The notes under the pieces are model-generated. The model did no database searches. It saw nothing but the letters and a program-made list of their open reading frames with translations, and was not told the DNA's origin. This document shows positions 9,187 to 11,403 of a DNA stretch of 54,109 nt, in pieces. Location: positions 1-54,109 of the IMG/VR virus record IMGVR_UViG_3300024343_000019. One strand, written 5' to 3'. This DNA comes from a virus. The translations under genes were made by a program, and so were the position numbers. How positions within the stretch are numbered: the first letter of the stretch is position 1; every line of letters begins with the position of its first letter.

Positions 9187-9212
9187 AAAAAAACCCGCCA
9201 CAGTGGCGGGTT
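9187..9212 (-). terminator. intrinsic terminator of the large RNA
   Basis: An 8-bp stem, AACCCGCC/GGCGGGTT with a 5-nt loop, is followed on the minus strand by seven T. It ends the transcript that starts near 10125. On the plus strand the T-run is poor, so the direction is clear. Confidence 0.85.
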
Positions 9213-9538
9213 ACTTTATGCGGGCTGAGATTACACCGTATTATGAGAGCCTTTGGTCATTACCGTTAGCCTTGCGAGCCACGTTCTACCTTTATCCACT
9301 AATATGCCTTTCAGCTATACTAGTATCTCTCAGTGCTGCCTTTTTTAGAGTCTGGCGTTTGACTCGTCGTATAATGCTATTCGTCCCTCAATCTTCCGTT
9401 TGCCTTGCGAGCAGTTCACAGTCGCTAAACCGTTACGTCTTCTTTCCGAACAACTACCTCCACCTTGCGAGTTTCAGTAGACCCAATTCACTTGCGTGTC
9501 AGGTGTTAAGCACCTTTCACATTATACCGGGACAGTCT

Positions 9539-9619
9539 TTCGCTTTTATATCAAAACAGGGATTGAACCTGTGCCGATTCCTTAGAAGGGAATTGCTCTA
9601 CCGCTGAGCTATTTGCGAA
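9539..9619 (-). ncRNA. tRNA-Arg(UCU)-like domain embedded in the large RNA
   Basis: The minus strand folds as a tRNA body. The D-stem is GCTC/GAGC with a GG-containing loop. The anticodon stem is ATTCC/GGAAT with loop CTTCTAA, giving anticodon TCT at 9586-9584. The T-arm is ACAGG-TTCAATC-CCTGT. The acceptor stem is abnormal: only AAA/TTT stacks directly, then a 9-nt bulge (GATATAAAA), then TTCGC/GCGAA. No CCA follows. The domain is enclosed by CTGGGACAG (9642-9634) pairing with CTGTCCCGG (9535-9527). It therefore looks like a structural tRNA mimic within the larger RNA and not a free tRNA gene, although processing cannot be excluded. Confidence 0.75.
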
Positions 9620-10131
9620 CCTACTAAGATGTGCTGTCCCAGTTGCACCATACCTTGTTAGATACAGTATACAACACATCTTCTGTCTTTCGTCTTGCGG
9701 ACTACTCAACCTTACTTCACGACTCCAGGTCCTACCCTTTCACCGTTTGTAATGCTACATTGCCCTTGTTTGCGGACTCGGACTCTGTAACTACCAGTTG
9801 GTTTTTACTGTTCACCGTTTTGGCTATACGCTGTAGAACCGCCAAGTTCCTTATCGCTCACCGACTGGCTCTGCGACTATCCTTTCGGACAGCATATACG
9901 GTTTACCAGTTACCGCCCACCCACAGACGGAAGTTGCTTTCGGTTTTAAGGCCGAGTCAACTTTAACCCTGGCTTGTATAGATGAACCATTGCTGGCGCA
10001 GGTTTATAGGAAGCCCTGCTTTGGGAGTGTTACCACTCTTATTCTAATGACGCTATACCGCCAATCCCTCTAGCACAATGTGCTTTTGATTACATTGTAA
10101 ACAGAAACACATTCGCTTTCGTTATGTTCTT

Positions 10132-10160
10132 AATATAGTATATGTGAGAGTGAAAGTCAA
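10132..10160 (-). promoter_or_regulatory. sigma70-type promoter of the large RNA
   Basis: The minus strand has a -35 TTGACT (10160-10155), a 17-nt spacer and a -10 TATATT (10137-10132). An A/T-rich upstream stretch with several A-tracts could act as an UP element. This is a host-polymerase promoter and not a late TATAAATA element, so expression is expected early. Confidence 0.8.
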
Positions 10161-10193: not shown

Positions 10194-10220
10194 AAAAAAA
10201 GCAGGGCCGAAGCCCTGCTT
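10194..10220 (-). terminator. intrinsic terminator after the capsid gene
   Basis: A GCAGGGC/GCCCTGC stem with a TTCG loop on the minus strand is followed by a T7 run. It sits 23 bp after the stop of the major capsid gene and separates the head operon from the large RNA promoter. Confidence 0.85.
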
Positions 10221-10242: not shown

Positions 10243-11403
10243 TTATTGGAATGATAGTGCGCTGCCTAGAACACCGATCTTTGATAGGTAGTCTGCTGCG
10301 TTACCTAGTGATGATGCTTGGTTGTTTAGCTCAACATAGCCGTAACGTGTCATGAATGATACTGTTGGCTCGAATGTTGCTGGATCTAGAACTGTACCTG
10401 AGCTCATTAGAGGGATGTATGGGCAGTAGAATGCTGCTGCGTCCATTTCGCCATCGCCTTTGTAACCTACTAGGATGTCTGCATCGTCTGCTGCATACTG
10501 GTTTACAAACACTTTCATTGTGCCGTTTAGAGTACCAACGAACTTTGTATTTGTTGGTGCTTCGAATGGGCCTTCTGTTGTGCGAGCAAATGCTGATGTA
10601 GTTGCTGACTGTAGAACAGTTAGGATTGTTGGTGAAACTACTACGTAGTTACCTGCGCCACGACGTGTGCGTGATGCGATTAGGTTTGCTGAGCGGTTGA
10701 TTAGAACTGCTAGAGCTGCGTGTTGGTCACCAACGAATGTTGCTTGACCTGATACGTTACCTTGGTCGTATGTATCTGTTGCTGTGCCTGCTAGAGCTAG
10801 TAGAGAAGCGATGATTTCCTGATCGATCTCTGCTGTGATCTCTTGTGCAAGTGCTTGCATGATTTCTGCTTCTACGTCTAGGCCGTGCATTGAGTTAGCA
10901 TCTTGTGCTGCTTCGAATGTCCAACGTGCTGATAGCTTACGTGTTTTAGCTTCAACAGTTTGCTTTAGGACTTGGATTGACATACGGCGACCAGCTTCAG
11001 CTTCTAGAACTGATGTTGGTGCTGGTGCTGAACCACCAAAGCCTGAATAGCCTGCTGCGATTGCGAATGGTGATAGTGCTTCATCACCAGCGTTAACGCC
11101 TGCTGCTGTTTCTGAGTAACGTACACGTAGTGTGTGGATTTGGCCTACTGGGCCAGTCATTGGCTGAACACCAACAAGTTCGTTTGCAATAACAGTTGGC
11201 ATAACACGACGGATTACTGGAAGGATAACTTTGTTTAGTGTTGCAATGTTTCCTGCCATTGTTGTGCCTGATAGTGCGGCTTCTGAAAGGTAGCTCTTTG
11301 TGTTCTCAAGAACTGTTTCCATTACTACCTTTTTGTTGCCTTTTAAACCATCAGTTAGGGCTTCTTTTGCTGCACCCCAGTTTTCAAATAGGTTTTGTGA
11401 CAT
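10243..11403 (-). CDS. 23: major capsid protein gp23
   Basis: This is the HK97-fold capsid subunit of T4-like phages, which builds the hexamers of the head. The diagnostic gp23 blocks are IANELVGVQPMTGPVGQIHT (about residues 72-91), EAKTRKLSARWTFEAAQDA, HGLDVEAEIMQALAQEI, and the C-terminal VGYKGDGEMDAAAFYCPYIP with SFMTRYGYVE. At 386 aa it is clearly shorter than T4 gp23 (521 aa), as in the more distant T4-like phages. In T4 the precursor's N-terminal part is removed by gp21; the first 60 or so residues here are helical and polar and probably serve the same purpose. It is preceded by AAGGAG 10 nt before the ATG, lies 15 bp after gp22 and is followed by a strong terminator. No separate gp24 vertex protein is visible in the window. 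Confidence 0.97.
   Translation of the reverse strand: MSQNLFENWGAAKEALTDGLKGNKKVVMETVLENTKSYLSEAALSGTTMAGNIATLNKVILPVIRRVMPTVIANELVGVQPMTGPVGQIHTLRVRYSETAAGVNAGDEALSPFAIAAGYSGFGGSAPAPTSVLEAEAGRRMSIQVLKQTVEAKTRKLSARWTFEAAQDANSMHGLDVEAEIMQALAQEITAEIDQEIIASLLALAGTATDTYDQGNVSGQATFVGDQHAALAVLINRSANLIASRTRRGAGNYVVVSPTILTVLQSATTSAFARTTEGPFEAPTNTKFVGTLNGTMKVFVNQYAADDADILVGYKGDGEMDAAAFYCPYIPLMSSGTVLDPATFEPTVSFMTRYGYVELNNQASSLGNAADYLSKIGVLGSALSFQ

What the first reader, a model, noticed from the sequence alone, without database searches (positions are those of the whole stretch)
9187..10125. Large (~940 nt) structured RNA with its own promoter and terminator inside the late gene cluster
Seen: a sigma70 promoter (TTGACT-17-TATATT), a terminator with T7, no credible protein gene, higher GC than the flanks, and many short helices with GNRA-type loops. 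Established: only a few bacterial and phage RNAs of this size are neither rRNA nor mRNA (GOLLD, ROOL, OLE and similar), and GOLLD is often phage-borne and tRNA-linked. Inference: this is a GOLLD-class RNA or an unknown giant RNA of a T4-like phage, lying beside the capsid terminator. Its sigma70 promoter suggests a role before virion assembly, or accumulation through the whole infection.
Basis: partly seen in the sequence, partly recalled or inferred. Interest (0 to 1): 0.9.

Follow-up and report, generated by a model that had tools for sequence, protein, structure and literature searches.

The report
Phage GOLLD RNA with tRNA-like insert
A phage related to T4 carries, just behind its capsid gene, a known kind of giant RNA (GOLLD, whose relatives build hollow RNA cages), and the piece of it expected to face the inside of the cage is a conserved tRNA look-alike that lacks the end needed to carry an amino acid.

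Summary
The minus strand at 10125-9187 encodes a roughly 940-nt non-coding RNA with a sigma70-type promoter and a strong terminator, directly behind the gp23 capsid gene. Rfam identifies it as GOLLD (RF02032, 192.8 bits, cut-off 150). An alignment of 66 relatives supports both domains: 120 of 208 pairs show compensatory changes, against 2-6 in slid controls. The known GOLLD inter-chain bridge also covaries. So it is a GOLLD member, not an unknown giant RNA.

Across relatives it keeps the tRNA core, including the 13-22-46 triple (47 of 48 sequences). Its acceptor stem is cut to four pairs: positions 1-3 pair at chance level, and CCA is encoded in 1 of 48 linkers against 625 of 666 free tRNAs. 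It is therefore probably not a working tRNA but a tRNA mimic. I propose that the cage displays it inside to capture a tRNA-binding factor; that step is inference. The same genomic slot holds manA RNA in about a third of relatives.

The parts
10243..11403 (-). major capsid protein gp23 gene, upstream neighbour (context)
   Evidence: Pfam Gp23 E 1e-100; PHROG major head protein
10199..10220 (-). intrinsic terminator of the capsid gene
10132..10160 (-). sigma70-type promoter TTGACT-17-TATATT of the RNA
   Evidence: unchanged in L472, where a second copy lies downstream; same layout in relatives
9683..10125 (-). GOLLD 5' domain (outside the Rfam model)
   Evidence: full-length homologues; covarying helices, e.g. 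9791-9776/9769-9754 with 10 compensatory pairs
9222..9682 (-). GOLLD conserved 3' region, Rfam RF02032 positions 1-416
   Evidence: 192.8 bits, gathering score 150
9528..9641 (-). linker, with its closing helix GGGACAG/CTGTCCC (9641-9634 / 9535-9528)
   Evidence: helix 98% paired with compensatory changes; position matches the interior-facing linker of PMC12286853
9548..9618 (-). tRNA-Arg(TCT)-like element; 4-bp acceptor stem (9615-9612 / 9555-9552), D arm 9609-9595, anticodon arm 9593-9577, T arm 9572-9556; no CCA
   Evidence: ARAGORN, RF00005 56.8 bits, acceptor analysis, core triple
9509..9513 (-). 5' half of long-range pairing with 9337-9333; by position the GOLLD kissing bridge B7 (L20-J13/15)
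   Evidence: five stacked pairs, 95-100% canonical, among the strongest covariation outside the nested structure; bridge described in PMC12286853
9333..9337 (-). 3' half of the same pairing
9192..9212 (-). intrinsic terminator of the RNA
   Evidence: hairpin kept despite divergence in L472

Best explanation
The locus is a GOLLD RNA gene with its own promoter and terminator, standing alone behind gp23 in a T4-like (probably jumbo) phage. The RNA folds into a 5' domain and a 3' domain, and by analogy with the solved GOLLD it most likely self-assembles into a 14-chain hollow cage. The linker that faces the cage interior is not an ordinary tRNA gene. It is a tRNA mimic: an L-shaped core with D, anticodon and T arms on a stub acceptor stem of four pairs, tethered at both ends and lacking CCA. 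I propose that the cage displays these mimics inside to capture or sequester a host (or phage) factor that recognises the tRNA elbow and/or anticodon loop, such as a tRNA-modifying enzyme, an anticodon nuclease or the ribosome, during lytic growth. Shown: GOLLD identity, conserved fold, the acceptor stub, the conserved tRNA core. Inferred: cage assembly of this member, display inside, and capture as the function. Separate estimates: GOLLD membership 0.98; element not a working tRNA 0.85; cage assembly 0.7; capture or decoy role 0.35.
For: GOLLD: 192.8 bits, whole model; 120 compensatory pairs against 2-6 in slid controls; B7-like bridge 95-100% paired. Two close relatives differ at 56 of 314 positions in the 3' domain, yet 15 base pairs changed on both sides and stayed paired and only 4 broke. 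tRNA mimic: in 48 non-redundant linkers, acceptor positions 1-3 pair in 0.52/0.29/0.56 against 0.49/0.33/0.51 when partners are shuffled, while positions 4-7 pair in 0.96-1.0. Pairing that allows bulges is also at chance. All three outer pairs form in 2/48 against 598/666 free tRNAs scanned with the same core criteria. CCA is encoded in 1/48 against 625/666. The tRNA fold is nevertheless selected: triple 13-22-46 as CG-G, TA-A or TG-A in 47/48, mutual information 0.97 against a shuffled maximum of 0.33. U33 is kept in 45/48. Position 34 changed about 25 times on the tree, position 36 only about 6. U36-A37-A38 occurs in 42/48 against 209/666 controls; these are the t6A determinants named in PMC7102964. 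Literature: GOLLD cage with the linker inside, and ribosome pull-down noted (PMC12286853). A mycobacterial GOLLD holds a pseudo-tRNA with no separate product on a northern blot (PMC6582537).
Against: No expression, assembly or binding data exist for this RNA. The linkers share ancestry, so the anticodon-loop bias may partly reflect a Lys/Asn-like founder tRNA. About two thirds of the Rfam-confirmed GOLLD loci found through the 3' motif have no detectable tRNA in the linker, so the mimic cannot be essential to every GOLLD. Two members (L392, L611) carry a permuted tRNA with a complete acceptor stem and CCA, which hints that in some phages the tRNA end matters. GOLLD was dispensable for production of one Lactobacillus prophage (cited in PMC7567579).
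Confidence: 0.4

Rival explanations
1. The linker holds an ordinary phage tRNA gene; GOLLD is its carrier or storage cage and the tRNA is released or works in translation (tRNA supply).
For: RF00005 and ARAGORN both call it a tRNA; D, anticodon and T arms and U33 are intact; PMC12286853 proposes encapsulated, covalently linked phage tRNAs.
Against: Acceptor positions 1-3 unpaired at chance level and no CCA; several members have G33 or C33 or 8-nt anticodon loops (inspection of the sequences); the anticodon changes often while the rest stays; no separate product on a mycobacterial northern blot (PMC6582537).
Confidence: 0.12
2. The mimic is a decoy for host anticodon nucleases or other tRNA-targeting defences; the cage protects or concentrates bait tRNAs.
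For: The anticodon stem-loop is kept without the amino-acid end; anticodon positions 34-35 evolve fast; 34 of 48 linkers bear Asn or Lys anticodons. Phage tRNAs are reported to evade tRNA-targeting defences (PMC10264068 and PMC11555353, titles and abstracts).
Against: No defence gene or nuclease is linked to the locus; conservation of U36-A37-A38 fits a modification enzyme equally well; shared ancestry can explain the anticodon skew.
Confidence: 0.2
3. The tRNA-like insert is only a compact, nuclease-resistant spacer that fills the linker; its protein-binding surface is irrelevant.
For: Linker length is tightly held at 94-108 nt in nearly all cases; a few linkers hold short degenerate hairpins instead (L269, L359, L377); many GOLLD lack a tRNA.
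Against: Selection on tertiary triples and on unpaired loop bases U33, U36, A37 and A38 is more than a spacer needs.
Confidence: 0.2
4. The RNA is an unknown class of giant phage RNA, or a packaging-type RNA tied to the capsid because it lies behind gp23.
For: Position behind gp23 inside the head and structural gene cluster.
Against: Full RF02032 match; 0 of 79 records with the most similar capsid genes other than L472 carry GOLLD; most relatives place GOLLD in tRNA arrays.
Confidence: 0.02

Closest known systems
GOLLD RNA (Rfam RF02032; Weinberg 2009 as cited; structure in Kretsch et al. 2025, PMC12286853)
   Same: Same conserved 3' region, 5' domain, linker position, B7-type long-range pairing, phage location, about 900 nt.
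   Different: The structure was solved for env-38, whose disordered linker is 42 nt (nucleotides 497-538); here the linker holds a tRNA-like element. The gene stands behind gp23 with no tRNA array nearby.
Pseudo-tRNA inside the mycobacterial GOLLD (PMC6582537)
   Same: A tRNA-like element within GOLLD judged not to be a working tRNA.
   Different: One case in a bacterial tRNA cluster; here the acceptor defect is shown to be systematic, with a defined four-pair stub, in phages.
manA RNA (RF01745)
   Same: Occupies the same slot behind the capsid gene in relatives, with a promoter of the same layout.
   Different: About 200 nt and unrelated sequence and structure; not a GOLLD.
ROOL RNA
   Same: Another phage RNA cage with a disordered internal linker (PMC12286853).
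   Different: Different family; no ROOL match here.
Bacterial Y RNA (YrlA) tRNA-like module
   Same: Works-like comparison from general knowledge: a tRNA mimic inside a larger non-coding RNA.
   Different: Not compared here by sequence or structure; a lead only.

Membership tests
GOLLD RNA (RF02032) | Match to the curated covariance model above its gathering score | tested here: met
   192.8 bits against 150, positions 1-416 of 416
GOLLD RNA (RF02032) | Base-paired 5' and 3' regions supported by covariation | tested here: met
   166 of 208 pairs at least 85% canonical, 120 compensatory; slid controls 2-6
GOLLD RNA (RF02032) | Long-range L20-J13/15 bridge (B7) | tested here: met
   9513-9509 with 9337-9333, 95-100% canonical, strong covariation; identity with B7 inferred from position in the Rfam alignment
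GOLLD RNA (RF02032) | Symmetric kissing loops L21a/L21b (B8, B9) | not tested
   stem numbering of the structure was not mapped onto this sequence
GOLLD RNA (RF02032) | Assembly into a 14-chain RNA cage | not testable with these tools
   needs purified RNA (cryo-EM, mass photometry)
GOLLD RNA (RF02032) | Usual neighbourhood: near tRNA genes (associated, not defining) | tested here: not met
   only the internal element in 54 kb, whereas 132 of 139 related GOLLD loci have a free tRNA within 3.5 kb
Functional tRNA (linker element) | Seven-pair acceptor stem | tested here: not met
   window: 5 of 7, TCGCAAA/TTTGATA; family: positions 1-3 at chance
Functional tRNA (linker element) | Encoded 3' CCA (not universal in bacteria, but usual in these phages' free tRNAs) | tested here: not met
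   absent in the window; 1 of 48 linkers against 625 of 666 free tRNAs
Functional tRNA (linker element) | D, anticodon and T arms, U33, core tertiary contacts | tested here: met
ROOL RNA | Match to the Rfam ROOL model | tested here: not met
   no ROOL match at gathering score or at E up to 10

The most novel reading that the evidence does not exclude
GOLLD RNAs of this type are RNA cages whose cargo-binding site is a tRNA mimic with a four-pair acceptor stub and conserved U33/U36-A37-A38; they capture a tRNA-recognising factor (a t6A-type modification enzyme, an anticodon nuclease or ribosomes) inside the cage during infection. This would give GOLLD its first defined molecular function.
Probability: 0.25. 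Interest if true: 0.88.

Novelty: new member of a known kind. Interest (0 to 1): 0.5.

Why it matters
GOLLD has a solved cage structure but no known function. Showing that the interior linker is a conserved tRNA mimic which probably cannot be charged, rather than a passenger tRNA gene, points to what the cage may hold or bind and makes the question testable with a small deletion. The switch between manA RNA and GOLLD in one slot behind the capsid gene also suggests that these unrelated phage RNAs may serve related needs.

Tried and rejected
Unknown giant RNA: rejected by the Rfam match. Overlapping coding gene: rejected, no frame conserved. Capsid-linked packaging RNA: rejected as a general explanation because relatives with the most similar capsid genes mostly lack GOLLD and other GOLLD sit in tRNA arrays.

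Acceptor stem completed by bulged pairs: tested, at chance. Anticodon loop docking elsewhere in GOLLD: no strong covariation with loop positions 9588-9582. Promoter score alone: not above chance; only the comparative evidence supports it.

The single scan of bacterial genomes with the 5' flank pattern gave 94 matches; none of those loci showed the GOLLD linker signature (the three hits are viral loci), so bacterial carriers were not studied. The Weinberg 2009, Morgado 2020 and Harris & Breaker 2018 papers were not held or not consulted; whether they already describe the acceptor stub is unknown to me.

A search for permuted tRNAs mostly returned permuted tRNA-like genes outside GOLLD and was not pursued.

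Full report
Observation. The minus strand 10125-9187 lies between the terminator of the gp23 capsid gene and a short structural gene, and has no credible reading frame. A promoter TTGACT-17-TATATT (10160-10132) and a terminator (9212-9192, T7) bound it. The promoter is not above chance as a pattern match, but the relative L472 retains it and carries a second copy downstream, each ending in the same TATACTATATTAAGAACATAA block.

Identity. cmscan gives RF02032 GOLLD over all 416 model positions at 192.8 bits, gathering score 150. The Rfam model covers only 9682-9222. The 5' domain 10125-9683 is homologous in many phage contigs. In an alignment of 66 diverse full-length relatives (mean identity 62%), 208 pairs are predicted, 166 are at least 85% canonical and 120 show two-sided changes; sliding the 3' partner by 1-3 columns leaves 2-6. 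The structure was predicted from the same alignment, which favours it, but the contrast with the slid controls is very large. Outside the nested structure the strongest run of covariation is 9513-9509 with 9337-9333, which by position in the Rfam alignment is the L20-J13/15 bridge that the cryo-EM study found to be an inter-chain contact (PMC12286853).

Close relative. L472 has a capsid protein 96% identical to the window's and GOLLD in the same place. From the promoter through the linker the two RNAs differ at 3 positions of about 590. From about 9528 on they differ at 56 of 314 positions in the 3' domain, which looks like a recombination breakpoint at the boundary between the linker helix and the 3' domain (inference). 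Fifteen pairs changed on both sides and remained paired; four were broken. L046 is 99.8% identical over 7.5 kb and is probably the same virus.

The tRNA-like element. ARAGORN and RF00005 both find tRNA-Arg(TCT) at 9618-9548, inside the linker closed by GGGACAG/CTGTCCC. In the solved GOLLD the linker lies inside the cage (PMC12286853), whose authors note that phage tRNAs are sometimes found there. Here the acceptor stem is TCGCAAA/TTTGATA, with positions 2 and 3 mismatched and no CCA.

I collected 120 distinct linkers through patterns outside the tRNA core. The pattern includes the conserved flank AGTAGGTT, which touches the outer acceptor bases in some linkers; the others do not. Of these, 89 have a strict tRNA core. 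In 48 non-redundant cases acceptor positions 1-3 pair no more often than when partners are shuffled, positions 4-7 pair in 96-100%, and bulged extensions are also at chance. The same core scan found 666 free tRNAs on the same viral loci; 598 have all three outer pairs and 625 encode CCA, against 2 and 1 of 48 linkers.

The tRNA fold itself is under selection. The base triple 13-22-46 is kept by covariation in 47 of 48, and U33, U36, A37 and A38 are conserved, while anticodon positions 34 and 35 changed about 25 and 16 times on the GOLLD tree, against 6 at position 36. U8, A14 and the D-loop GG were required by the scan and are not evidence. U36-A37-A38 are the known determinants for the t6A modification (PMC7102964). 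Whether this means modification, or descent from Lys/Asn tRNAs, is open.

Mechanism. Shown: a GOLLD RNA with conserved fold and a tRNA-like module that lacks the amino-acid end and is tethered on both sides. Inferred: cage assembly, display of the module inside, and capture of a tRNA-recognising factor. Released-tRNA and storage models are disfavoured by the acceptor stub and, in a mycobacterial relative, by the absence of a separate product on a northern blot (PMC6582537). A decoy for tRNA-targeting defence and a passive spacer remain open.

Genomic slot. None of the 79 records with the most similar capsid genes other than L472 holds GOLLD. In 19 of 60 loci with enough downstream sequence the slot behind the capsid gene holds the manA RNA signature within 1300 nt. 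RF01745 matches 14 of 50 such records, 4 of them above its cut-off, and several have a promoter of the same layout. In contrast, 132 of 139 GOLLD-with-linker loci with enough flank lie within 3.5 kb of free tRNAs; this phage has none in 54 kb. The capsid protein is nearest to those of jumbo T4-like phages such as Vibrio phage 2.275.O, Sinorhizobium phage Phosso and Pseudomonas phage PA5oct, and Phosso carries a GOLLD too.

Verdict. An ordinary member of GOLLD by class, in an unusual place. I could not establish whether this stub has been described before in papers that are not held here.

Noticed in passing
L392 4745-4871; L611 linker: Two GOLLD linkers hold a circularly permuted tRNA-like element (T arm, acceptor with CCA, loop, acceptor 5' strand, D arm, then an anticodon-like hairpin), with a complete seven-pair acceptor stem (L611 read by eye).
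   Followed up: partly
L312 near 4941, L313 near 3956, L357, L366, L614, L618, L627, L676, L698 near 7539, L709: Apparent permuted tRNA genes in phage tRNA arrays: T arm, acceptor stem closed by a short loop, D arm, and in most cases a conserved CCTGTT downstream. No Rfam family was reported at the positions checked.
   Followed up: partly
slot behind the capsid gene: L127, L130, L135, L139, L144, L152, L168, L174 and others: manA RNA (RF01745) or its 5' signature occupies the position that GOLLD holds in the window.
   Followed up: yes
L130 2935-2984: A glutamine riboswitch aptamer (RF01739) lies directly behind the capsid gene and ahead of manA RNA in a relative.
   Followed up: no
L472 about 1990-2170; window 10180-10110: In the relative the RNA promoter is duplicated about 100 nt apart; the window looks like a collapse between the two repeats, joining the first -35 to the shared -10 block.
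   Followed up: partly
window about 9528: Abrupt drop from near identity to 82% between window and L472 at the end of the linker helix suggests recombination between the GOLLD 5' and 3' domains.
   Followed up: partly
L392 8196-8535; L698 4343-4640: Phage-borne permuted tmRNA genes (RF04321), with alpha-tmRNA overlapping in L392.
   Followed up: no
L259/L260 linker (Caulobacter phages Karma and phiCbK): Nearly identical GOLLD linker elements differ mainly in the anticodon loop (CTCTTAA against CGTCCTA, annotated tRNA-Lys and tRNA-Gly), so these database tRNA annotations are probably wrong.
   Followed up: partly
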